From a virus, in IMG/VR virus record IMGVR_UViG_3300030107_001760, positions 1 through 29,927 of that record: 29,927 nucleotides of DNA; one strand, written 5' to 3'. Below are positions 2,589 through 20,560 of the stretch, piece after piece. The stretch's first letter is position 1; every line of letters starts with the position of its first letter. A program made the position numbers and the translations under genes. The notes under the pieces were generated by a model, which was given only the letters and a program-made list of their open reading frames with translations, had not been told where the DNA came from and searched no databases.

Positions 2589-2780
2589 ATGATTGTAACA
2601 ACAGCAAATAAGTATGAATTTACTAATGAAAATGGTAACAAAGTAGAAAAAATAGTTGCGATTATTGATGGTCAAGAAAAACACATACCATTAAATACAA
2701 AAAATAGACACTATCGTGCAGTTTTAAGGTGGGTAGATGCTGGTAACACTATTGGAACACATAGTTTTCCAACTGAGTAA
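2589..2780 (+). CDS. Small phage protein of unknown function
   Basis: This 63-aa protein is preceded by GAGGA and ends in TAATG overlap with the oxygenase gene. Residues 5-34 look like two or three beta strands (KYEFTNENGNKVEKIVAII) and the second half is one helix (YRAVLRWVDAGNTI). The sequence resembles small conserved proteins found beside tail-fibre genes in marine phages. I cannot give a function. Coupling to the 2OG oxygenase gene suggests the two are made together. Confidence 0.6.
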   Translation: MIVTTANKYEFTNENGNKVEKIVAIIDGQEKHIPLNTKNRHYRAVLRWVDAGNTIGTHSFPTE

Positions 2781-3358
2781 TGAAAAAACTTGAAGCACCA
2801 AACTCTCTTATTGGGTATGCAGATTTAGACGAAGAGATTTGTGATAATTTAATTAATTTTTTTGAACACGATACAATGTTTCATACAGTCAAAGGTGTAA
2901 CTGCTAACGAAAAAAACCCATCTAAAGATATAAAAGAATCTTTTGATAAAAATATTTCTGCAAATTGTAGTGATAAAACAATTTATAAATATCTTACTAT
3001 TTTGCATGATTTTTTAAATGATTATAAAAAACTTTTTCCAACTTTATCTTTTGTTAATATAAGAATAAGTGACTCATTTAATATACAAAAATATCCGAAA
3101 GATGGTGCATATAAAGCATGGCATTGTGAAAGAATGAATAGTGATGCAAAAACAAGTTTACGAGTATTATCCTTTATTACATATTTAAATGATGTTAATG
3201 TTGGTGGAGAAACAGAGTTTGCATTACAGCAAAAAAGAATTAAAGCAAAAAAAGGTAGAACAATTATATTTCCGAGTGAATGGTCACATTTACATAGAGG
3301 TGTACCTTCACCAAATCAAGAGAAATATATAACAGCAGGATGGTTTGAGTTATTATGA
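2780..3358 (+). CDS. 2OG-Fe(II) oxygenase, prolyl 4-hydroxylase-like
   Basis: This 192-aa protein has a double-stranded beta-helix core at about residues 95-192. The visible signatures are WHCE (H115, E117) as the first iron ligands, YLNDVNVGGETEF (135-147) as in prolyl-4-hydroxylases, HLHRG with the distal iron ligand H172, and EKYITAGW, where K182 is the likely 2-oxoglutarate anchor. Members of this family hydroxylate protein prolines or other substrates using O2 and 2-oxoglutarate. The first motif is HxE rather than the usual HxD, a conservative change. Its position among fibre and virion genes suggests hydroxylation of a virion protein or a cell-surface target, but the substrate is not shown by the sequence. 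Confidence 0.8.
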   Translation: MKKLEAPNSLIGYADLDEEICDNLINFFEHDTMFHTVKGVTANEKNPSKDIKESFDKNISANCSDKTIYKYLTILHDFLNDYKKLFPTLSFVNIRISDSFNIQKYPKDGAYKAWHCERMNSDAKTSLRVLSFITYLNDVNVGGETEFALQQKRIKAKKGRTIIFPSEWSHLHRGVPSPNQEKYITAGWFELL

Positions 3359-7307: not shown

Positions 7308-8761
7308 TGAGTTATCAAGATGCAAAGTTAGCGGTACAAAAACAAATAGATCGTAATAATGCTCAAAGTTCTGATAGTCCTAATCTTATTCAAAGTCTTG
7401 CACAACAAACTTTTGCAGGGGTTATATCAGAAGTAGGTAAGGATGCTGACTACTCAGCAGAAATTAAAGATCCTTTTTCTAGACTAATAGATCAAGCAAC
7501 TGGTGGTGCAATTACAAAAGCTAAAGAACGATTATTTAAAAAACAATTAGCTAGAGAAACTAAAACTAAACTTGCTCAGTATGAAGCAGAAGCTCCTCTT
7601 AGAGCATTAGAGTTAAACGATACAATTTTAAAAAATCAAAAAGTAAAAGCAGCCGCAACAAAAAAAACAAATACAAAACTTGCATCTGAAATAATGCCTT
7701 TTTTAAATGTACCAGATAATTTAAAAACTTCTTTTAGAGATATGTTAATAAATAATACAACTATTTTAAGTGGATTTGCAAATATAGTAGAACAAAGAAA
7801 AGTAGGTAAAGATATTGAAGTTAGTTTTATTGGAAAAGATCAAGATTATTTAAAAGGCATTAAAGTATCAGACACTATAATAGGAGATGATGGAAAAGAA
7901 TATATTGCTTATAATAGAACAGATAATGTTTCAAACTTTAAAAGATATTCTGCAAAGTTGCGTTCTAATGTAGTTAATTATTTAGATAATAAATTTACAG
8001 ATACAGAAAGTAGAGAATATAAAGCAGTACAAAATCTAAAAGAAACAGGTTTATTATCTTTAGAAGAAAAACAATTACTTATTCCTCATATGAGAGATGC
8101 TGTTACAACAAGAGCTGGAATAGACCCTGAACTTAAAAGAAGTGTTAATGCTATAATTGCTGGTCATACAACTATGAATGATAATATTGATAAACAAATA
8201 TTTCAAAAACTTGATGATGCATTAAAATTTACAATACGCAATAATTCAAGTGAGGTTAATAAAATTAATAGTCAAATAAATGCTCTTAGAAGATCTATAG
8301 CTGATGCTAAAGCAGTTCCAATAGCTGAAAGAGAACAAGGTTTAGAGGGTGAAATATCAAGACAAGAAAGAGTAATAGAAAATTTACAAAAGCAAAGACA
8401 AACTTTTCAATTTAATATACAAAAAGCAGAAACAAATGTTGCAGAAAGAACAGCAGTTAAAAGTTTATTAAAAAATAGAATTATTGCAAGAGCTATTGCT
8501 GATAAAAATTTAGATCAATTAAACCAACCAGATGTAGTTAGACAGTATGCAGCAGAAGTATTAAAAGATACCTCTTTTCAAAAGGAAGCTTCTTCTTTAG
8601 TAAAACAATTACAACAATATGGTTTAATTAGCAGATCTGAAAATGAACAAGAAATTAAATCTACTTTACAAAAAGATGAGGAAGATCTACCTCCGGAAAA
8701 CAAAGAAGAAGAAGAAGAAATAGAAGGCGGAAGAAAATTAAAAGTAAACAAAATTAGTTGA
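7307..8761 (+). CDS. Coiled-coil internal virion protein
   Basis: The 484-aa product is Lys/Gln/Glu-rich and mostly helical. Residues about 300-400 are a strong coiled-coil candidate (QINALRRSIADAKAVPIAE, then SRQERVIENLQKQRQTFQF). The last 35 residues are very acidic with a run of glutamates before a basic terminus. It has no membrane segment and no enzymatic motif. Lying between the 634-aa and 1,500-aa proteins, it fits the middle member of a three-protein internal/ejection set, as T7 gp15 does between gp14 and gp16. This is argued from position and size, not homology. Its TGA lies just before the next ribosome site. Confidence 0.6.
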   Translation: MSYQDAKLAVQKQIDRNNAQSSDSPNLIQSLAQQTFAGVISEVGKDADYSAEIKDPFSRLIDQATGGAITKAKERLFKKQLARETKTKLAQYEAEAPLRALELNDTILKNQKVKAAATKKTNTKLASEIMPFLNVPDNLKTSFRDMLINNTTILSGFANIVEQRKVGKDIEVSFIGKDQDYLKGIKVSDTIIGDDGKEYIAYNRTDNVSNFKRYSAKLRSNVVNYLDNKFTDTESREYKAVQNLKETGLLSLEEKQLLIPHMRDAVTTRAGIDPELKRSVNAIIAGHTTMNDNIDKQIFQKLDDALKFTIRNNSSEVNKINSQINALRRSIADAKAVPIAEREQGLEGEISRQERVIENLQKQRQTFQFNIQKAETNVAERTAVKSLLKNRIIARAIADKNLDQLNQPDVVRQYAAEVLKDTSFQKEASSLVKQLQQYGLISRSENEQEIKSTLQKDEEDLPPENKEEEEEIEGGRKLKVNKIS

Positions 8762-8772
8762 TAAGGATAACT

Positions 8773-11700
8773 ATGCCAACTTATAGCACAAATATAAATG
8801 ATTATAAAGGTAAGTATAATCCTGATACAGAAGATGTTTTTATAGTAGATGGTTATGGTTCTTATATAATACCTAAAGATGCTACTAATAGAGAATTAAA
8901 TAATTTAGTAGACGAAATACAATACTCTGAACAAACAACTTATGAAGATCTTGTTGAAAATAAACGTCTTATAGATGCTTATAAAAGAAGGTATCAAGAA
9001 GTTAATGGGGAAGAGTTTCAAGGAACTGACCAAGAAGCTGTAGATGATTATATGACAGACATGACTCGTATAAATTGGAACACAGTAGATTTTGTTCAAT
9101 CTGTATGGGATGTATATACAAGTGATAACGAACAATCTAAAGCAGACTTAGGTTATATGTTAGATACTTTTGATAGAGTAAAAGCTACAGGAGAAGGTAG
9201 TAGAGGTTGGTGGGCTAAAACAAAAGATATTGGAGGTGCATTAGCTACTGATGTAACTTTATATGCAGGTATAGCTACTGGTGGTTTAGGTCTTATTGGT
9301 AGATCTGCTGCAAAAAAAGTAGCTGCTGACCAAGTTAAAAAATCTCTAGTTAAATCTGCATTTAAACCTGTTCAAAGATTAGCAGATGTTGCTGTAAAAT
9401 ATCCTAAAAGTACAGTAGGTGCTATTGGTTTTGGTTATGGTGCTGGATATGAAGCAGGTTTTCAAGGCATTGCACAAAAGTCTGGTGTTGAACAAAAGAA
9501 AATAGATTTAGATATTTTAGATATAGAAGATGCAGGATTTGAAAAAAGAGATATTTTATTTGCAGGAGGACTAGGTGCTGGTGCAGGTATTGGTGGTACA
9601 GTTGCTGCTAATACTATTTCTAAAGTAGTTAAAAGCGTAATTAAACCTAAGTTTACTCCAACAGATAGATCTCAAAGATCTCGTAAAGAATTACTAAAAG
9701 AAATAGAAGAAGAAGGTATTAATCCTGATATTGCTAGAGATCCTAGTTCTGTTGAAACAATTATACATACTAAAAAAGTATTAAAGGATAGTAAAAAAAA
9801 TAAAGAACCTATTCAATGGTTAGATAAAGATCAAGAAAATATTGAGGTATTTGTAGGTAACGATAAACAATCTTATAAATTTTCAGATGAACAATTAGTA
9901 GAAGTAGAAGAGTTAGTTAATAAAAAATTAGATGAAACAGAAAAACTTAGTCAAGAATTACAAATGCAACCATCAAGAACACCTGAACAAATTCGTATGG
10001 ATGTTGAAAAAAAATATGCAAAGAAAAATAATATAAAAGAAACAGGTAGAGAAATTGAGTTATTAGATGAAGAAGGTAATATAGTTGCAACAACTTTTCT
10101 TAATTCTAAAGGTGGTATTGATATTCAAAAAAATATTTCTGATGATGCATTAAGAGTTATTTTATCTAATAATGATGCTTTTAAAAATAGAATTGATACT
10201 ACAATTACAAGTGCATATGATGGTTTGCAAAATAGAGTTGCAAGACAAATGACTGCTAATAGAGGTTTACCTGCTTCTTTAAAAAATAGATTAGATCAAA
10301 CACCTCAAGACATTAGAGGAAAAGTTTTTGGTGTTCAAAAAAATGTAGAAAAATTAGATAGAATTATTAAATCAGGTTCTGGTATTTCTTTAAGTAAAGC
10401 AGGACCTGAAATTCATGTAGCATTAAAACAGGCTTTAATAGATAACAAAGTTTTTGGAAAAGGTCCTAACAAACATAAGAATATTTTACATGAGTTTTTT
10501 AAAAATGATGCAGAAAAATTAAGCAAATTAGATACACATATAAAAGTTTTAAGAGATGATATTTCAGAAACAAGTAACCTATTATTACAATCAGGATTTG
10601 TTAGAGATGGTACTGAATTATATAATACTATTAAAAAAGGAATAGACCATCAAAAATATACTCATCAACAATTTGGTATCTATGAAAATCCAACAGCTTT
10701 ATCAAAATCTTTAGAACAACAAATAAAAACTTTAAATATAACTGATGATGCTGGTAATTATATTAAAGATAATACAGAAAAATTATCTCATTTAATTACT
10801 AAAGTAAAAAATAAATTTGATTTAAAAACAGATAGTGATGCAAAATTAGCACTACACCTTTTGCGTAGTAAAGATAAAAAAGCTTTTAATGAGCTTGGAC
10901 AACTTGCACCAAAAAAATTACGAGATAAAACATTAAAAGAAATAGCAGGAGATATTACTGATCCTCGACAAGTGTATACACAAACAGTTCTTAAAACATA
11001 TAAACTTGCACAAGATTATAATCTAAAAAAAGATTTAGTTCGTGAAGGACTTGGACAAGGTATAATGATTAGAGGTCTAAAACAACCTAAAGGAATTAAC
11101 GAACAGCTAGTTGAATTAGGAAAAACTAAAAGAACCTTTGCTTTATCTGATAAAGAAATAGATACATTAACACAAGAAGGTTTAAGTGATTTAGCAGATG
11201 ATCCTTTTAAAAATATTTTTACTAACGAAACATTTAAAAAAGCTTATAAAGTTGCAACTGAACCTTATAGTAGAGTAGGTACAGACAATGCTGTACTTAG
11301 AGGTATTTTAGGAACAACAGCAGCTTTTCATACCAATAGAATTTTATTATCTCCTACAACTCATATGAGATCTTTATTAGGTGGTGCAGGAAATAACGTA
11401 TCTAATGGTGTACTGCCTATTAGTATACAAACTTGGAATAAACAAATGGGTTCTAGAAAAGGTGTTTTTAGAGATGCTCTTCCATTTTTCCACATATTAG
11501 ATAATGGTTTACAACTACAACCTACAGATATAAAAAGAATACAAAAACTAATTAGACTAAATACATTATCTGGTGGTGCTAGATCTCAAGAATTTATACA
11601 AACATGGAACACTCTTAGAAAAAATACTACTGCATTAGATGCATTAGAAAAAGAAGCTTTTCTTGGTGTTACAGGTACAAAGACAGCACAAAAAGCTTTA

Positions 11701-13275
11701 AATAAATTATCACAAATTTATCAATTAACAGATGACTTTAACCGCATCAAAGCATTTGAGTTTGAATACTTTATGTTAGACGTAAGTTTTGGTCAAGGAC
11801 AAGATGCAAGTAAGTTAGTAAACTTTGCTAAAAAATTAGGTGTCTTTGATGCAGAAAATTTACCTATAACAAGTAGTGATCCTCAAGTAATAACTTTACT
11901 AGAACGAGTTGCAGCAGCTAAAGTTTCTATGTATAATCCAACGTATAACCAATTACCTAGACTTATTTCTAATTTAAAAAATGTAGGGTTAGGTAACTTT
12001 GTATCTCATCCAACTGAGGTTGTAAGAAACTATAAAAATGCATGGAAGTTAGCTGTCTTAGAAACATCTTCAGGTATTAAAGGACAGATGGGTAGAGGTA
12101 TGTTACGAGCTTCTGCTTTAACTGGATACTCTGCATTTAGTTTAGGAATACCTACAGGTGTTGGTTCTTTTATTTATGGAATAAGTGATGAAGAAGAAAA
12201 AGCTTTGAACTCTTCTTATATGACTTCACCCTATGATTATGGTTTTAATAATATGGCTAGAAGTGAAATTAAAGATGGTAAACTTGTTATGGCTAATACT
12301 GGTTGGACAGATGGTTTATCTGCATTAAGTAGACCTTTACGAGTATTTTGGAAACGATTACAAGAAAGTCAAGAAATTAATGATGGTGATCCTGAAATAG
12401 AAATGGCTGTTGTAGATGCTGTAAAAGCATTTTTAATACCTTATGCTAATCCTGCTCAAGGTCCTTTAGTTTTAATTCAAGCTGCACAAGCATTAGGTAA
12501 ACAAGTTAATGGTAGAGAATTAACGTATAGAGAAGAAAAAGATTTAGCTACTGCTATAAAATCTGTTTTTATGCCACAAATAATTATGGATGTTGATAAA
12601 GCTTATAGAAGGCATTTATTATTTTTTAAAGGAAAAGAACGAACAATATATGGAACAGAGGTAGATCCTGCTAAGTTTACTATGATGGGTTGGGTTACAA
12701 GTTTAAAAAATAAAACTGTTGATATTCCTGTTTCTGCTGGTTTTGGTCTTAAATTATTAAACAGAGAATCTAATGCTATTAATACAGACTTTAATAAAGT
12801 TAAAGATGATATAATGCAAATACCTGTAGGAACACAAGCTACTCCTAAACAACGTGAAAAACTTATTGAAGCTTATGAAAAATTTTTAAAAGATAAATAC
12901 GAAAATGGTAAAAAAGTTAGGCAGTTATATTTAAACTACAATACTTTAGCCACACCTAAAAATTTTGGTGGTGATTTATACAAATATAGATATGAATTAT
13001 TTGTAGACATAGCTACTTCAGGAGGTAGATCAAAAGAATTTACAAGGTTAAAAAGATATAGTGGTAAAAATTCAGAAAAATTTAAAGCTAATTTTAATAA
13101 AGATTTTATTGGTAATATAACACGTTCTGAACCAGTTGTAATTATATTAAGTGAACCTTTTTCTAATGAAGAATATAAAGACTTGAAACCTATTTTTGGT
13201 ACAGATACTTTATTAAAAATTAGAACTATGTACAAAACTAATGCAGCAAGACCTATAATAGAAGGAGATGAATAA
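8773..13275 (+). CDS. Giant internal virion (ejection) protein
   Basis: I chose ATG 8773 (1,500 aa), six bases after AAGGA, over an in-frame TTG at 8758 that would add five residues. The opening 35 residues include DVFIVDGYGSYIIP, a phrase typical of large marine phage virion proteins. Three glycine-rich hydrophobic stretches lie at about 154-180 (GGALATDVTLYAGIATGGLG), 214-233 (TVGAIGFGYGAGYEAGFQ) and 261-285 (ILFAGGLGAGAGIGG), separated by basic segments. The rest is a long Lys/Glu/Asn-rich helical body with another Gly/Ala-rich stretch near 1120-1150. No transglycosylase or peptidase motif is apparent, unlike T7 gp16. By size and place it is the candidate membrane-inserting ejection protein. 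Confidence 0.7.
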   Translation: MPTYSTNINDYKGKYNPDTEDVFIVDGYGSYIIPKDATNRELNNLVDEIQYSEQTTYEDLVENKRLIDAYKRRYQEVNGEEFQGTDQEAVDDYMTDMTRINWNTVDFVQSVWDVYTSDNEQSKADLGYMLDTFDRVKATGEGSRGWWAKTKDIGGALATDVTLYAGIATGGLGLIGRSAAKKVAADQVKKSLVKSAFKPVQRLADVAVKYPKSTVGAIGFGYGAGYEAGFQGIAQKSGVEQKKIDLDILDIEDAGFEKRDILFAGGLGAGAGIGGTVAANTISKVVKSVIKPKFTPTDRSQRSRKELLKEIEEEGINPDIARDPSSVETIIHTKKVLKDSKKNKEPIQWLDKDQENIEVFVGNDKQSYKFSDEQLVEVEELVNKKLDETEKLSQELQMQPSRTPEQIRMDVEKKYAKKNNIKETGREIELLDEEGNIVATTFLNSKGGIDIQKNISDDALRVILSNNDAFKNRIDTTITSAYDGLQNRVARQMTANRGLPASLKNRLDQTPQDIRGKVFGVQKNVEKLDRIIKSGSGISLSKAGPEIHVALKQALIDNKVFGKGPNKHKNILHEFFKNDAEKLSKLDTHIKVLRDDISETSNLLLQSGFVRDGTELYNTIKKGIDHQKYTHQQFGIYENPTALSKSLEQQIKTLNITDDAGNYIKDNTEKLSHLITKVKNKFDLKTDSDAKLALHLLRSKDKKAFNELGQLAPKKLRDKTLKEIAGDITDPRQVYTQTVLKTYKLAQDYNLKKDLVREGLGQGIMIRGLKQPKGINEQLVELGKTKRTFALSDKEIDTLTQEGLSDLADDPFKNIFTNETFKKAYKVATEPYSRVGTDNAVLRGILGTTAAFHTNRILLSPTTHMRSLLGGAGNNVSNGVLPISIQTWNKQMGSRKGVFRDALPFFHILDNGLQLQPTDIKRIQKLIRLNTLSGGARSQEFIQTWNTLRKNTTALDALEKEAFLGVTGTKTAQKALNKLSQIYQLTDDFNRIKAFEFEYFMLDVSFGQGQDASKLVNFAKKLGVFDAENLPITSSDPQVITLLERVAAAKVSMYNPTYNQLPRLISNLKNVGLGNFVSHPTEVVRNYKNAWKLAVLETSSGIKGQMGRGMLRASALTGYSAFSLGIPTGVGSFIYGISDEEEKALNSSYMTSPYDYGFNNMARSEIKDGKLVMANTGWTDGLSALSRPLRVFWKRLQESQEINDGDPEIEMAVVDAVKAFLIPYANPAQGPLVLIQAAQALGKQVNGRELTYREEKDLATAIKSVFMPQIIMDVDKAYRRHLLFFKGKERTIYGTEVDPAKFTMMGWVTSLKNKTVDIPVSAGFGLKLLNRESNAINTDFNKVKDDIMQIPVGTQATPKQREKLIEAYEKFLKDKYENGKKVRQLYLNYNTLATPKNFGGDLYKYRYELFVDIATSGGRSKEFTRLKRYSGKNSEKFKANFNKDFIGNITRSEPVVIILSEPFSNEEYKDLKPIFGTDTLLKIRTMYKTNAARPIIEGDE

Positions 13276-13697
13276 TGGCATATGGTGATCCAAGAACATT
13301 AGGACAAAGAACAGTTGCAACAGGTGTAGCAAGTAAAGGACTATTTACTAAGAGAGGTACTCCTTTAACTAAAGATATAACAACAACTCCTGAAATTAAT
13401 ATGCCTAAAGATGTTTCTGTAAGTGCTACACAAACTCAAGAAGAATTAAGAGATGCTCCTTTAGTTTCTGCACCAAGACCTAGAACACCTACTCCTGCTT
13501 TAACATCAGACCAAAATAATACAAGCTTAATTAATGGTGTTGTTAGTTTAGCAGCAGCATTAGGGGATATAGGTAAGTCAGATGCTAAAGAACCTGTTAA
13601 AGAAAAAAATATTTTAAAACTTGCTATGTCAGGTGTTGGTAAAGTTTTAGGATTTGAAGAAGGTGGTTTTGTTACTAGAAATAGAGGGAGTAAATAA
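13275..13697 (+). CDS. Small virion-associated protein with GGFV C-terminus
   Basis: This 140-aa protein begins by TAATG overlap with the giant gene and ends the same way into the holin candidate. The first 90 residues are Thr/Pro/Ala-rich and probably disordered. A helix (VVSLAAALGDIG) follows, and the protein ends with VGKVLGFEEGGFVTRNRGSK. The terminal (E/D)GG-x-V plus basic residues is repeated at the end of, and once inside, the 673-aa protein at 14875. Such a shared tail may be a virion-incorporation or sorting signal; that is inference. No enzymatic motif is visible. Confidence 0.6.
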   Translation: MAYGDPRTLGQRTVATGVASKGLFTKRGTPLTKDITTTPEINMPKDVSVSATQTQEELRDAPLVSAPRPRTPTPALTSDQNNTSLINGVVSLAAALGDIGKSDAKEPVKEKNILKLAMSGVGKVLGFEEGGFVTRNRGSK

Positions 13698-14853: not shown

Positions 14854-14875
14854 AAAATATAGGAGAGTTTCTTAA
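14720..14875 (+). CDS. Basic ORF without a start (frame B), likely the true product after a shift
   Basis: This frame is open from just after a TGA at 14714-14716 to a TAA at 14873-14875 that overlaps the next ATG (TAATG), the same junction used by nearly every gene in this operon. It has no ATG, GTG or TTG start. The product would contain IKALTPAEYAATTRKKRKG and QFVKQPKRIAKKVRKYRR, a plausible small nucleic-acid-binding-type basic protein. A +1 shift, or one surplus base in the AAG/AAA run, would attach it to the ATG at 14713 to give a 53-aa protein. I regard frame B as more gene-like than frame A, but cannot exclude dual coding. Confidence 0.45.
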   Translation, partial: RRRKRKAIKALTPAEYAATTRKKRKGTKQGKQFVKQPKRIAKKVRKYRRVS

Positions 14876-16896
14876 TGGTTGAAAGTTATAGGCAAGGTAG
14901 AGTACAAGGTTATCCTGAACTTAAAAGATCTTTAGCTAGTTTAGGTTTTAATCCTTTAGATAAATCTGATATTACTACAGGTCCTACTACTGGATCTCCT
15001 ACTGGTCCTACTACTGGTCCTACTACTGGTCCTACTAATGAGCAGGTAGAAAAAGCAAGAGAGCAAACAGAAAGTTTTATAAAAGATTTTGACATACCAA
15101 ATATGTTTGATACGTTTGATCCTTCTAACTCTTCAAATATAATAACCTCAGAAGATTTAATTAAAGCTGCTCAGTTTAGAGCAAGTCCTCTTGCTAGGTT
15201 TGGTCCTACTATATTAGGACAACTTAATCCTGTGTTTGGAATACTAGGAAGAATAGGAACTTTTTTAATAGATAAAAGAATAGAGAACGTATTAAATCTA
15301 AGAGGTGATGAAGATTTATTAAAGGATTGGAAAAAAGGTAAACGTAAAGAAGTTATAGAATCTTTAACTGAAAAAGCTAGGGTTGCAGAAGAAGCAGTAA
15401 AACCTGTAGATGTTCCTGTTGATATAGATGCAGCACAATTTGAAGGTGGCGATACTGGAGTGGGAGCAACCGCTATATCTCCTCAAGAGGCAGCAGCAGC
15501 AGCTGTAGCAGGAGGACAGAACATAGATACCTCTGGTCAAGGAACAACACCACAACCACCTACACCTGAAGCTCCAGATATACCAGACATTGAAGTTCCA
15601 GATACAGATCAAGGAGCTGCGGATGTTGCAGCAGGTTTTGGTATAACCTTTACTAAAGATGGTGGTAGAGTTAATAAATCTTTAGGTGGATTGTTAGCAA
15701 AACTACCAAGATCTATTTTACAAAAAACCTCTAAAAAACCTAATCTTCCTAAACCTAAAAGACTGGTAGCTAAAGATCCTGAATCTGTACGAAAAGAAAT
15801 GTCAGAGTTGATACCTGAAACAACAGAAGATATAACAACAATTACGACACTTTCTGACGAGGTTCCAAAAGATGAAAAACAAGTTGATGAATTATTAGAA
15901 TCTACACAAGATATACAAGAAGATATTATTAAACCTAAAAAAACTAAGAAAGCATATAAATTATTTAGAGTAAAAGATAATAAATTACATCCTTTATTTG
16001 TTGATACTACAACTTCTATTCCTTTAAACAAATGGTTAAAAGCATCTATAGGAGAAAAAACTAAAACAGGTCAAGTTAAAGCAAGAGGACAGTCAGGTCT
16101 TGCTTTTAGACCGGGTTGGCACTCAGGAGATTTTCCTGTAGCTACTCATATTGGTGGTAAAATAGATCCAAAAACAGGAAACAGAATTACAGATAGATCT
16201 TTTAAACCTAATGTAAGAGAAGATAATCAAGTTTGGGCTGAAGTAGAAATATCTGATGATATTGATTGGCAAACTATAGCTAATAGTAGAGCATCTATTA
16301 TAAAATCTGGTCCTAATAAAGGCAAACTAAATTCAAGAGAAGCACACATAACAGATCAAATTCCTGAAGGAGGTAATTATAGATATAAAACTAATCCTAA
16401 TATGAAAGGAAATTGGTTAATAAGTGGCGAGATAAAAGTTAATCGTATACTAACAGATGAACAGGTAAGAGAAATTAATAAACCTACAGGCATACAAGAC
16501 TTACCAAGAAAACACGAAGTAGTTCAAGATACTATAAAAGGTATGTTTATTAAACCTAAATCTAAACCTAAAGAAAAACCCTTTGAAGTAGAGTATGAGG
16601 GAGGGGAAACTATAATGGGTTTGAGTCTCGGAGATACAGCAGAAGAAGTAGCAGAAAGTCTTAATACAAAATTAACATTAAAACAAATAGCTAAAATACT
16701 AGATGAACAAGGTCTTGATTATGAGTATAATAATAGAGATGGTATTACTATTATGACTGAGGTAGGTCGTGATAAAGTATCCCAAAAATCTTTTAAAAAA
16801 GGAACAACATTTAAAACTCTTTTAAATTTTTTAGGTTACTCAAGAGGTGGACAAGTTCAAGACTTGCGAGATGGTGGTAGAGTTAGAAGTAAGTAG
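14875..16896 (+). CDS. 673-aa two-part protein: virion-type N-terminus plus mobile-element-type domain
   Basis: Residues 34-54 are TTGPTTG-type tandem repeats. A helical part with a hydrophobic segment (about 107-135) follows, then a Pro/Ala linker and a KDGGRV tag at 261-266. After a charged linker (about 290-355), residues about 358-548 form a distinct domain: YKLFRVKDNKLHPLFV, FRPGWHSGDFPVATHIG (H416, H425), VWAEVEI, YRYKTNPNMKGNWLISGEIK and VNRILTDEQV. I recognise that pattern from uncharacterised proteins of bacterial prophages and conjugative elements; its activity is unknown. The protein ends SRGGQVQDLRDGGRVRSK. Its ATG is coupled to the frame B stop, and its 3' end overlaps the convergent minus gene by 14 bp. 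Confidence 0.65.
   Translation: MVESYRQGRVQGYPELKRSLASLGFNPLDKSDITTGPTTGSPTGPTTGPTTGPTNEQVEKAREQTESFIKDFDIPNMFDTFDPSNSSNIITSEDLIKAAQFRASPLARFGPTILGQLNPVFGILGRIGTFLIDKRIENVLNLRGDEDLLKDWKKGKRKEVIESLTEKARVAEEAVKPVDVPVDIDAAQFEGGDTGVGATAISPQEAAAAAVAGGQNIDTSGQGTTPQPPTPEAPDIPDIEVPDTDQGAADVAAGFGITFTKDGGRVNKSLGGLLAKLPRSILQKTSKKPNLPKPKRLVAKDPESVRKEMSELIPETTEDITTITTLSDEVPKDEKQVDELLESTQDIQEDIIKPKKTKKAYKLFRVKDNKLHPLFVDTTTSIPLNKWLKASIGEKTKTGQVKARGQSGLAFRPGWHSGDFPVATHIGGKIDPKTGNRITDRSFKPNVREDNQVWAEVEISDDIDWQTIANSRASIIKSGPNKGKLNSREAHITDQIPEGGNYRYKTNPNMKGNWLISGEIKVNRILTDEQVREINKPTGIQDLPRKHEVVQDTIKGMFIKPKSKPKEKPFEVEYEGGETIMGLSLGDTAEEVAESLNTKLTLKQIAKILDEQGLDYEYNNRDGITIMTEVGRDKVSQKSFKKGTTFKTLLNFLGYSRGGQVQDLRDGGRVRSK
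14974..15036 (+). repeat. Tandem 12-bp repeat encoding Thr-Gly-Pro-Thr units
   Basis: Units of the type GGTCCTACTACT (one diverged to GGATCTCCTACT) are repeated about five times in frame inside the 673-aa gene. They encode a flexible TTGP linker. Copy number probably varies between relatives, and replication slippage is the likely source. Confidence 0.7.
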
Positions 16897-17101
16897 ATAA
16901 ACTTGTATCTAAAGATTCACTTAATTTTTTTAAGTGTGTTAGAAAGTTTGCTACTGCTGCTCTGTTTTCATTCTCAGATAAATCAACAGTTGCTTTTTCC
17001 CAATCTTCTTTATGTAAGATAGATCTTTCCAATTCAACTTTCCCATTATTTAAATATACACCATACTCAAATAATATTATTCTTTTATTTGTAGAACTCA
17101 T
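16883..17101 (-). CDS. Hypothetical protein at the end of the minus operon
   Basis: This 72-aa protein starts at ATG 17101 after AGGAAA and overlaps the preceding endolysin gene by 17 nt. The first half looks like beta strands (RIILFEYGVYLNNGKVELER) and the second is helical (NRAAVANFLTHLKKLSESLD). No known motif. It is the last gene of the minus-strand operon, and its 3' end overlaps the converging 673-aa gene by 14 bp. The position beside the endolysin may mean a lysis-related role, which is a guess. Confidence 0.55.
   Translation of the reverse strand: MSSTNKRIILFEYGVYLNNGKVELERSILHKEDWEKATVDLSENENRAAVANFLTHLKKLSESLDTSLSTYF
16894..16936. terminator. Two hairpins at the meeting point of the convergent operons
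   Basis: The first is a 6-bp stem TAGATA/TATCTA (16894-16899 with 16906-16911) around the plus-strand stop. The second is a 7-bp stem CACTTAA/TTAAGTG (16918-16924 with 16930-16936) with a five-T loop. Neither is GC-rich and neither is followed by a proper U run on either strand, so these are not classical intrinsic terminators. Their place between tail-to-tail operons is the reason to list them. The second lies inside the minus-strand 72-aa gene. Confidence 0.3.
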
Positions 17102-19658: not shown

Positions 19659-20267
19659 TTATCTTCCACGTATTGCTCCTATATAATTAAATAGTTTCTT
19701 GGGGTTAGTTTTTACTTCATTTAGTTTATCCAATGGTGGATAGTAATTTCCTGAGATTGAAATTCTTGTTTCCTTACTAAGATTTCTAGATGTTGTGTGA
19801 GGAATATAAGTAGGAAAAATTATTAAATCTCCTTCACTTGGTATTACTTTATGAAAATGTCTATACGTATCTATTTGTACTATCGCTACAAAATCACCAC
19901 TATTCTTTGGAAAATTAACCCAATATACAAATGATAATCCTGCTGGTCCGGGATCTTGATGTGTATGAAACATTGTAGATTGTTCTGGTTCTACTAAATG
20001 TGTCCATGCTTCATCACCCATTAATAAGTAAGGATTGATAGACTTTATTACATCATCTATTTTTTCTAGTAGGTGATTGATAGCTGGTGTTTTTGGTAAA
20101 ACAACATCTTCAATACTAGGGTCCATAGCATTAAAATTTAATTTATTAGCAGACTGTTCTATCGCATCTTTTTTAATTTGTTTATTATCTACTTCACTTA
20201 AAAGATTATGTCGAGACATACCTACTAAACAAATAGGTGAAAACTTTCCTGTAATATAGTCTGTCAT
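19659..20267 (-). CDS. 2OG-Fe(II) oxygenase (PF13759-like)
   Basis: This 202-aa protein has the order of motifs of the phage 2OG-FeII_Oxy_5 group. FHTHQDPGPAGLSFVYWVNF gives the HxD pair H103/D105 and the first core strand. GDLIIFPTYIPHTTSRN gives the distal iron ligand H157, and ETRISISGNYY gives R168 as probable 2-oxoglutarate anchor. The first 80 residues are a helical lead-in. The family performs O2-dependent hydroxylations; substrates of the phage members are mostly unknown. It is coupled by TAATG to the SufT-like gene upstream and lies just before the RNR pair. It is a different subfamily from the oxygenase at 2780. Confidence 0.8.
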   Translation of the reverse strand: MTDYITGKFSPICLVGMSRHNLLSEVDNKQIKKDAIEQSANKLNFNAMDPSIEDVVLPKTPAINHLLEKIDDVIKSINPYLLMGDEAWTHLVEPEQSTMFHTHQDPGPAGLSFVYWVNFPKNSGDFVAIVQIDTYRHFHKVIPSEGDLIIFPTYIPHTTSRNLSKETRISISGNYYPPLDKLNEVKTNPKKLFNYIGAIRGR

Positions 20268-20560
20268 TACATTAATCCTAACTCTAACTTAGCTTCTTCA
20301 GACATCATTCTTTGATTCCATGAAGGGTGGAATACAAGATTAACATATGCTGTATCAATACCTTCAACAGTTTTAACTGCCATTTCTACTGACTTTAATA
20401 ACTCACCTGCAACTGGACAGGCAGGACTTGTTAGTGTCATACTAATATCTACATGATTATCTTTTTCTATAACATCATAAATTAAACCAAGCTCATAAAT
20501 GTCTACAGATATTTCAGGGTCATAAACTTTTTTTAAAGCTTGTTTAATCTCTTCTCTCAT
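20267..20560 (-). CDS. SufT/MIP18-family (DUF59) Fe-S assembly-like protein
   Basis: The 97-aa protein is a complete single DUF59 domain: KVYDPEISVDIYELGLIYDV (residues 11-30, DPE at 14-16), then MTLTSPACPVAGELL (41-55) with the invariant Cys48, then VNLVFHPSW. The end MMSEEAKLELGLM is typical of the SufT branch. Cellular relatives help mature Fe-S proteins; here it may keep a host or phage Fe-S enzyme active during infection. In this window the Cys-bearing nuclease at 23522 is a possible client. It is coupled by ATGA to the MazG-like gene and by TAATG to the oxygenase. This is an unusual auxiliary metabolic gene for a phage of this size. Confidence 0.85.
   Translation of the reverse strand: MREEIKQALKKVYDPEISVDIYELGLIYDVIEKDNHVDISMTLTSPACPVAGELLKSVEMAVKTVEGIDTAYVNLVFHPSWNQRMMSEEAKLELGLM

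What the first reader, a model, noticed from the sequence alone, without database searches (positions are those of the whole stretch)
14875..16896. Fusion of a virion-type segment with a mobile-element domain of unknown activity
The 673-aa protein carries a (D)GGRV-basic tag both at residues 261-266 and at its very end, the same tag that ends the 140-aa protein at 13275. An internal 'terminal' tag suggests that a second protein (residues about 290-673) was fused on. That second part has a domain (358-548, RPGWH, VATHIG, YRYKTNPNM) I associate with bacterial prophage and conjugative-element proteins. If packaged in the virion, it could be an effector delivered into the host.
Basis: partly seen in the sequence, partly recalled or inferred. 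Interest (0 to 1): 0.6.

Follow-up and report, generated by a model that had tools for sequence, protein, structure and literature searches.

The report
Modular phage effector with ADP-ribosyltransferase-like domain
A marine phage protein carries an unnamed protein module, shared by at least 100 phage sequences and folded roughly like ADP-ribosylating enzymes, set among short glycine tags that tend to mark where such modules are joined, so it is probably a swappable effector that the virus uses against its host.

Summary
DGGRV occurs at residues 262-266 and 666-670 of the 673-aa protein, and residues 357-549 form a real domain. No Pfam or NCBIfam model matches it; only PHROG 30118 (function unknown) does well, E=4e-50. 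At least 100 IMG/VR loci encode relatives. The module stands alone (189-218 aa) or sits anywhere in unrelated proteins of up to 3,900 aa, many with known effector domains of phage 'polyvalent proteins' (ART-PolyVal in 7 of 27 carriers scanned), often beside terminase, portal or head genes. The closest relative found of this phage has, in the same gene slot, a tandem ADP-ribosyltransferase-type protein with GG tags at start, middle and end: same slot, different cargo, same tags. Across 60 carriers GG tags cluster at the module's edges (24 sides against 8 expected, p<=0.0005). Two independent AlphaFold models (full module; a 105-aa solo relative) resemble mainly ADP-ribosyltransferases, Arr in both, but scores are modest (Z 4-6) and the usual first-strand catalytic residue is not conserved. 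Best reading: an exchangeable late-gene effector module with an ART-like fold, plausibly packaged in the virion. Catalysis and packaging are inferred. The 'virion-type' N-terminal half is unsupported: it has no detectable relatives.

The parts
14875..16896 (+). 673-aa protein (P0001), last gene of the + strand (late-type) gene block; its 3' end overlaps the convergent gene 16883-17101 (-) by 14 nt
14875..15657 (+). residues 1-261: N-terminal part without detectable relatives
   Evidence: no Pfam or PHROG match and no IMG/VR relative for the N-terminal query
14973..15037 (+). 12-bp tandem repeat, 5.4 copies, encoding a TTGP-type linker near the N terminus
15658..15672 (+). internal GG tag DGGRV, residues 262-266, inside an exact 17-nt direct repeat (15657-15673)
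15673..15942 (+). residues 267-356: charged, low-complexity linker between the internal tag and the module
   Evidence: by reading; no family match except E>=0.18 coiled-coil-type noise
15943..16527 (+). the module, residues 357-551: family of PHROG 30118, predicted ART-like fold
16528..16842 (+). residues 552-656: C-terminal part without detectable relatives
16843..16884 (+). C-terminal double tag RGGQVQDLRDGGRV, residues 657-670; second exact 17-nt repeat copy at 16869-16885
   Evidence: counterpart FNKGGQVRPMYDGGLV at the end of the slot protein of the closest relative
13275..13697 (+). 140-aa protein whose C terminus carries a tag of the same kind (GGFV, residues 130-133)
16883..17101 (-). 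72-aa convergent gene; its homologue (40% identity) flanks the same slot in the relative L114, which fixes the synteny

Best explanation
The 673-aa protein is a GG-tagged modular effector of the phage 'polyvalent protein' type, made as the last gene of the phage's late-type gene block. Its cargo is an undescribed domain with an ADP-ribosyltransferase-like fold. GG tags mark joins between exchangeable modules: at this gene slot one phage lineage carries this module and its closest known relative carries two ART-PolyVal-type modules with the same kind of tags. Shown: the module is real, widespread, mobile and fused to many partners; the slot swap; the statistical link of tags with module edges. 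Supported but modest: the ART-like fold. Inferred: the protein is packaged in or with the virion and enters the host with the DNA, where the module acts in NAD+/ADP-ribose or nucleotide/RNA chemistry on a host target, or undoes such a host defence.
For: Module: PHROG 30118 E=4e-50; at least 100 relatives in IMG/VR, 9 in bacterial MAG contigs; carriers from 189 to 3,939 aa with the module near the N end, middle or C end. Partners: among 27 carriers ART-PolyVal in 7, DUF7178 in 3, Cell Wall Hydrolase in 3, and LPD39, Zeta_toxin, PBECR5, Peptidase_M78 in one each; DarB-like antirestriction, ParB C-terminal domain and virion RNA polymerase PHROGs in one each. Gene context: the neighbours of 41 carriers are rich in terminase, portal and head genes. 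Slot swap: L114/L195, the closest relative found (RNR 76%, primase 67.5%, polymerase 56% aa identity), has no copy of the module but at the same convergent slot an 822-aa protein with ART-PolyVal E=3e-10 plus a second module matching the ART region of L009 at E=4e-34 (the L009 region passes the Pfam cut-off), and GG tags at its start, between the modules and at its end. Tags: 33 in 6,425 aa of the 60-aa flanks against 85 in 74,396 aa elsewhere and 5 in 11,661 aa inside the module (Fisher p=1e-10); 24 tagged sides against 8.2 for random placement, p<=0.0005. Fold: full module pLDDT 92.5, 30 of the 31 listed entries with Z>=2 are ART-superfamily structures, best RES 4.6, Arr 4.3; solo relative, separate alignment, pLDDT 91.2, Arr-2 Z 5.3, Arr 5.0 and 4.7.
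Against: No fold match reaches Foldseek significance (best E 0.28 and 0.44), and Z of 4-6 can be a common arrangement. The fold rows come from chains that Foldseek pre-selected. The position expected for the first-strand H/R of ARTs is not conserved (R in 35 of 58, else K, T or E). In the window the tags are about 90-106 residues away from the module. Carriers of 2,000 aa or more show no tag enrichment (0 of 18 proteins). No virion proteomics. In the window this is the only recognised domain of the protein, so the defining multi-domain state is not shown for this copy.
Confidence: 0.5

Rival explanations
1. The module is a virion structural or assembly domain (head, neck or ejection machinery) and not an effector; the ART-like resemblance is only a common small beta-sheet arrangement.
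For: Carriers lie beside portal, terminase and head genes; some carriers match tail tape-measure PHROGs (2 of 27); Z-scores are modest; the classic catalytic position is not conserved.
Against: The module also exists as small stand-alone genes in non-structural regions, e.g. the 106-aa early gene of Kayfunavirus Pisces between SAM hydrolase and protein kinase, and beside RNA ligase, NADAR and nucleoside deoxyribosyltransferase genes. It varies freely in position and is missing from the closest relative. Several fully invariant polar residues (R412, H416, H425, K505, T506, N507) look like an active site, not packing.
Confidence: 0.15
2. The module is a nucleotide or ADP-ribose handling enzyme used for counter-defence or RNA repair (removing or processing ADP-ribose or RNA ends), not a transferase that attacks host proteins.
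For: Solo relatives lie next to RNA ligase genes in L201, L202, L212, L219, NADAR in L210 (E=5e-46), nucleoside 2-deoxyribosyltransferase in L212 and L218, phosphoesterase in L200 and L203 (by sequence). Iyer et al. 2022 (PMC9503650) link the H-H-h clade of ARTs and NADAR with RNA repair and soluble ADP-ribose derivatives.
Against: Only about 25 solo loci, some related (L201 and L202); NADAR occurs in about half of medium and jumbo phages (PMC9503650), so one adjacency is weak; no background rate was computed; the large carriers sit in virion gene blocks, which fits delivery but says nothing on the reaction.
Confidence: 0.2
3. The GG tags are not join marks but a shared functional signal (a packaging or targeting tag, or a processing site for a peptidase) that happens to lie in linkers.
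For: Tags recur at protein ends in unrelated proteins of the same phage (13275 and 14875) and of its relative; 11 of 57 carriers have a tag in their last 40 aa against 3.0 in shuffles. Iyer et al. 2017 (PMC5512222) propose processing of polyvalent proteins by built-in metallopeptidases.
Against: The copies within one gene can be exact DNA repeats (17 nt in the window, 17-18 nt in L195, 51 nt in L085), with somewhat more codon identity than codon usage predicts (221 against 178, pairs not independent), which fits duplication or recombination. The two ideas do not exclude each other.
Confidence: 0.25
4. Ordinary linker composition: marine phages use Gly-rich linkers and the tags are chance.
For: GG pairs are common, and some GGx[VIL] matches lie inside domains (19 in 11,661 aa).
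Against: Enrichment at module edges by random placement (24 against 8, p<=0.0005); DGGRV never twice in 20,000 shuffles; the same double tag at the end of the slot protein of the relative.
Confidence: 0.05

Closest known systems
Phage polyvalent proteins (Iyer et al. 2017, PMC5512222)
   Same: Modular proteins of portal-terminase phages that mix effector domains; carriers of this module contain ART-PolyVal, LPD39, PBECR5, Zeta toxin, peptidase and cell-wall hydrolase domains and lie beside virion genes.
   Different: No Pfam model matches this domain, LPD models included. The window protein has one recognised domain only. The GG-tag grammar did not surface in the searches made of that paper (terms glycine and linker: none).
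ART-PolyVal (PF18760), N4-like/Tox-ART-HYD2 ARTs of polyvalent proteins
   Same: Occupies the same gene slot in the closest relative, with the same kind of tags; often in the same protein as this module.
   Different: No sequence similarity detected: the window protein does not match PF18760. ART-PolyVal has an H-Y-D active site (PMC5512222); this module lacks a conserved first-strand H/R.
Rifampin ADP-ribosyltransferase Arr and RES-type ARTs
   Same: Best-ranked or near-best folds for both models (Arr Z 4.3 and 5.0-5.3; RES Z 4.6).
   Different: 4-14% identity, no significant Foldseek E-value, and the conserved residues of the module (R-P-G-W-H, H-I-G, Y-K-T-N) have no demonstrated counterpart.
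PHROG 30118 and PHROG 12224 (unknown function)
   Same: Family members by sequence: 30118 matches all 27 carriers scanned, 12224 matches 24.
   Different: These are unannotated clusters; no function or fold is given.
DUF7666 (PF24703), N-terminal domain of some RIIB and repeat proteins
   Same: Viral predicted-structure hits with probability about 0.98-0.99; similar motif order by eye (YK-F, G-H, AEVE).
   Different: Profile comparison is not significant (P 0.13 with the full module, 0.009 with the short family), so kinship is a lead only.

Membership tests
PHROG 30118 domain family | Full-length profile match | tested here: met
   E=4e-50 over profile positions 6-185 of 194; 58-sequence alignment with 20 invariant columns
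Polyvalent proteins | Several domains of disparate activity in one polypeptide (2 to 15 by the authors) | tested here: inconclusive
   Many carriers meet it; the window protein shows one recognised domain, and its N- and C-terminal parts match nothing
Polyvalent proteins | Encoded by a phage with portal-terminase packaging, near virion genes | tested here: inconclusive
   Met for the carriers; the window does not include the portal and terminase genes and its large + strand proteins have no family match
Polyvalent proteins | Packaged and injected with the DNA | not testable with these tools
   Needs virion proteomics or delivery assays
ADP-ribosyltransferase superfamily | ART fold (split beta-sheet core) | tested here: inconclusive
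   Two independent models rank ARTs first or nearly so, Z 4.6 and 5.3 at best (6.4 for 2aua, a protein of unknown function), but no significant Foldseek E-value
ADP-ribosyltransferase superfamily | Conserved catalytic triad, H-H-h, H-Y-[EDQ] or R-S-E (PMC9503650) | tested here: inconclusive
   By sequence the first-strand residue is not conserved (R365 in 35 of 58); H416 is invariant and could be a second-motif residue; no coordinates were available for a residue-level superposition
ADP-ribosyltransferase superfamily | NAD+-dependent transfer activity | not testable with these tools
   Needs a biochemical assay
ART-PolyVal PF18760 | Pfam model above gathering score | tested here: not met
   No match of the window protein at E<=1
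LPD1-LPD40 domains | Match to a Pfam LPD model | tested here: not met
   No Pfam LPD match at E<=1; it was not checked whether Pfam holds all 40 LPDs
DUF7666 | Pfam match or significant profile-profile match | tested here: not met
   No Pfam match; hhalign P 0.13 and 0.009

The most novel reading that the evidence does not exclude
The module is the founder of a new ART-superfamily clade with an unusual active site, and short GG tags, sometimes exact DNA repeats, are a general joining syntax by which phages shuffle effector modules at fixed gene slots.
Probability: 0.3. Interest if true: 0.75.

Novelty: new variant of a known kind. Interest (0 to 1): 0.5.

Why it matters
A module in at least 100 phage sequences, unmodelled in Pfam, with a recognisable fold lead and cheap solo versions of about 105 aa in cultivable coliphages, makes a testable new candidate for how phages act on host NAD+/ADP-ribose or RNA metabolism. 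The same-slot swap with a different effector and conserved tags offers a way to find further effector modules: look between GG tags.

Tried and rejected
Relatives of the N-terminal 302 aa, the C-terminal 120 aa and the 1505-aa protein in IMG/VR: none found. Sequence search of the PDB with the domain profile: none. Foldseek against PDB: not significant for either model. DUF7666 kinship: suggestive by structure, not significant by profiles; T4 RIIB itself has no DUF7666 match. Records of the two Aeromonas/Achromobacter phages fetched for DUF7666 gave no match. The idea that the tags are DNA-level repeats only: codon identity is just moderately above expectation, so most of the similarity can come from the amino-acid tag. 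Conjugative plasmids as main home of the domain: rejected, only two plasmid records match. BC2332 (2aua), the best row for the short model, has no known function, so it was not used as evidence.

Full report
What was checked. The ORF 14875-16896 encodes 673 aa. DGGRV stands at residues 262-266 and 666-670, and RGGQV at 657-661. Shuffling the protein gave one DGGRV in 24 of 20,000 trials and never two. The two copies are an exact 17-nt DNA repeat. The 140-aa protein at 13275 ends with a tag of the same kind, GGFV, but not the same letters.

The domain. No Pfam model fits (best E 0.18, coiled-coil-type noise), nor any NCBIfam model. PHROG 30118, of unknown function, matches residues 357-549 at E=4e-50. 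A three-sequence profile found at least 100 relatives in IMG/VR (80 kept) and nine in bacterial MAG contigs. In the annotated phage collection the window protein itself has one match, Roseobacter phage CRP-212 gp38, a 1203-aa protein encoded just after the portal and a small ORF. Among plasmids there are two matches.

Modularity. The module stands alone in L013, L073 and L089 (189-218 aa) and elsewhere lies at any position in proteins of up to 3,939 aa. The flanks differ: against 20 viral records the match never extends beyond about residues 323-592. Carriers also contain ART-PolyVal (7 of 27), DUF7178, Cell Wall Hydrolase, GP88, LPD39, Zeta_toxin, PBECR5 and others. This is the company described for polyvalent proteins by Iyer et al. 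2017 (PMC5512222). Neighbouring genes of 41 carriers include many terminase, portal and head genes. That is the context which Iyer et al. 2022 (PMC9503650) take as a sign of packaging.

The slot swap. The polymerase of the window led to L114 (IMGVR_UViG_3300020477_000148), the closest relative found: RNR 76%, primase 67.5%, polymerase 56% identity. Its replication genes keep the order of the window, and the 72-aa convergent neighbour of the 673-aa gene has a homologue there (40%). The slot next to it holds an 822-aa protein. This has an ART-PolyVal domain at 216-354 (E=3e-10) and a second module, from about residue 490, that matches the ART region of carrier L009 at E=4e-34. GG tags stand at its start (MYDGGLVYMQDGGDP), between the two modules (MYDGGIVQHMSEGG) and at its end (NKGGQVRPMYDGGLVLA). 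The module of the window is absent from that record. BLASTP between the two slot proteins finds the end tag as its top, non-significant, match (E 0.068). So the cargo differs and the tag style is kept.

Tag statistics. In 60 non-redundant carriers the stricter tag [DEKRNSQAMY]GGx[VIL] occurs 33 times in 6,425 aa of the 60-aa flanks, 5 times in 11,661 aa inside the module and 85 times in 74,396 aa elsewhere (flank against elsewhere Fisher p=1e-10). Moving the module at random within each protein gives 8.2 tagged sides on average against 24 observed (p<=0.0005). All of these come from carriers under 2,000 aa; the 18 longer ones show none. Typical edge tags read F/Y-A-x-GG-x-V. Of 26 exact direct repeats of 15 nt or more in 48 carrier-type genes, 7 have both copies on tags against 0.035 expected, but codon identity is only moderately above what codon usage predicts, so amino-acid constraint explains most of it. 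In the window the tags are about 90-106 residues from the module, so the window copy itself does not add to the edge statistic.

Fold. AlphaFold2 with 57 relatives gave pLDDT 92.5. Foldseek found nothing significant in the PDB. The second look by VIA-align listed 31 entries with Z>=2, of which 30 are ARTs (RES, Arr, cholix, exotoxin A, PARP, DarT, diphtheria toxin), best Z 4.6. A test independent of this was made with a divergent short family (105-114 aa) found in Vequintavirinae, Kayfunavirus and IMG/VR, related to the module at E=1e-19 by profile comparison. Its own alignment gave a model of pLDDT 91.2, and the rows were 2aua (unknown function, Z 6.4), Arr-2 5.3, Arr 5.0 and 4.7, then Tse2 and CDTa at 2.2-2.4 beside three other rows. 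Arr thus appears for both models. I take an ART-like fold as likely (about 0.65) but not shown. The strongly conserved residues are R412, G414, H416, H425, G427, W454, Y502, Y504, K505, T506, N507, M510 and W514. The first-strand position that is H or R in ARTs is not conserved, so if the module is an enzyme, its active site differs from the standard ones or was not identified here.

Clues to function. The short family sits next to RNA ligase genes in four loci, NADAR in one, nucleoside deoxyribosyltransferase in two and an ART-PolyVal gene two genes downstream in one, and in phage Pisces between the SAM hydrolase and protein kinase genes of the early region. This points to nucleotide, RNA or ADP-ribose chemistry, but no background rate was computed and some loci are related.

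How it most likely works. Made late, possibly packaged, delivered with the DNA, then acting on an NAD+/ADP-ribose or RNA-linked host process. Shown: module, modularity, partners, gene context of carriers, slot swap, tag enrichment. Supported: ART-like fold. Inferred: packaging (about 0.55), ADP-ribosyl transfer as the reaction (about 0.35). The window phage has a primase closest to Pelagibacter phage HTVC115P (52%), so it is probably a marine short-tailed phage; the host is unknown.

Noticed in passing
L196-L226 (e.g. L201:362-1823, L210:2501-3282, L212:1292-3225): A 105-aa solo branch of the family lies beside RNA ligase, NADAR, nucleoside deoxyribosyltransferase, phosphoesterase and ART-PolyVal genes.
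   Followed up: partly
L105:1456-1776 (Escherichia phage Pisces): A solo 106-aa member is the second gene of the genome, between SAM hydrolase and protein kinase: a likely early anti-host gene in a cultivable coliphage.
   Followed up: partly
L001:12184-15795 and L063:7481-10969: Carriers next to the portal also hold a DDIPAxLSEGE[FY]V-x-PADVVR segment near GG tags, a motif that I associate from memory with phage structural proteins.
   Followed up: no
window 8758-13275: The 1505-aa protein (probably a large internal virion protein, by position and size) is weakly similar (20%, E 5e-5, residues 701-1349) to L010, whose large ORF carries this module; it has no Pfam match.
   Followed up: partly
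window 2780-3358 and 19659-20267: Two proteins that read like 2-oxoglutarate/Fe(II) oxygenases (H-x-D/E ... H patterns); not tested.
   Followed up: no
window 20267-20560: 97-aa protein that reads like an iron-sulfur assembly factor of the DUF59/MIP18 kind; unusual in a phage, not tested.
   Followed up: no
BFVD matches of the module: Predicted structures of DUF7666 proteins, including RIIB proteins of some phages, resemble the module; if true, part of the RIIB family would have an ART-like domain.
   Followed up: partly
window 14973-15037: 12-bp tandem repeat (5.4 copies) encoding a TTGP linker near the N terminus.
   Followed up: no
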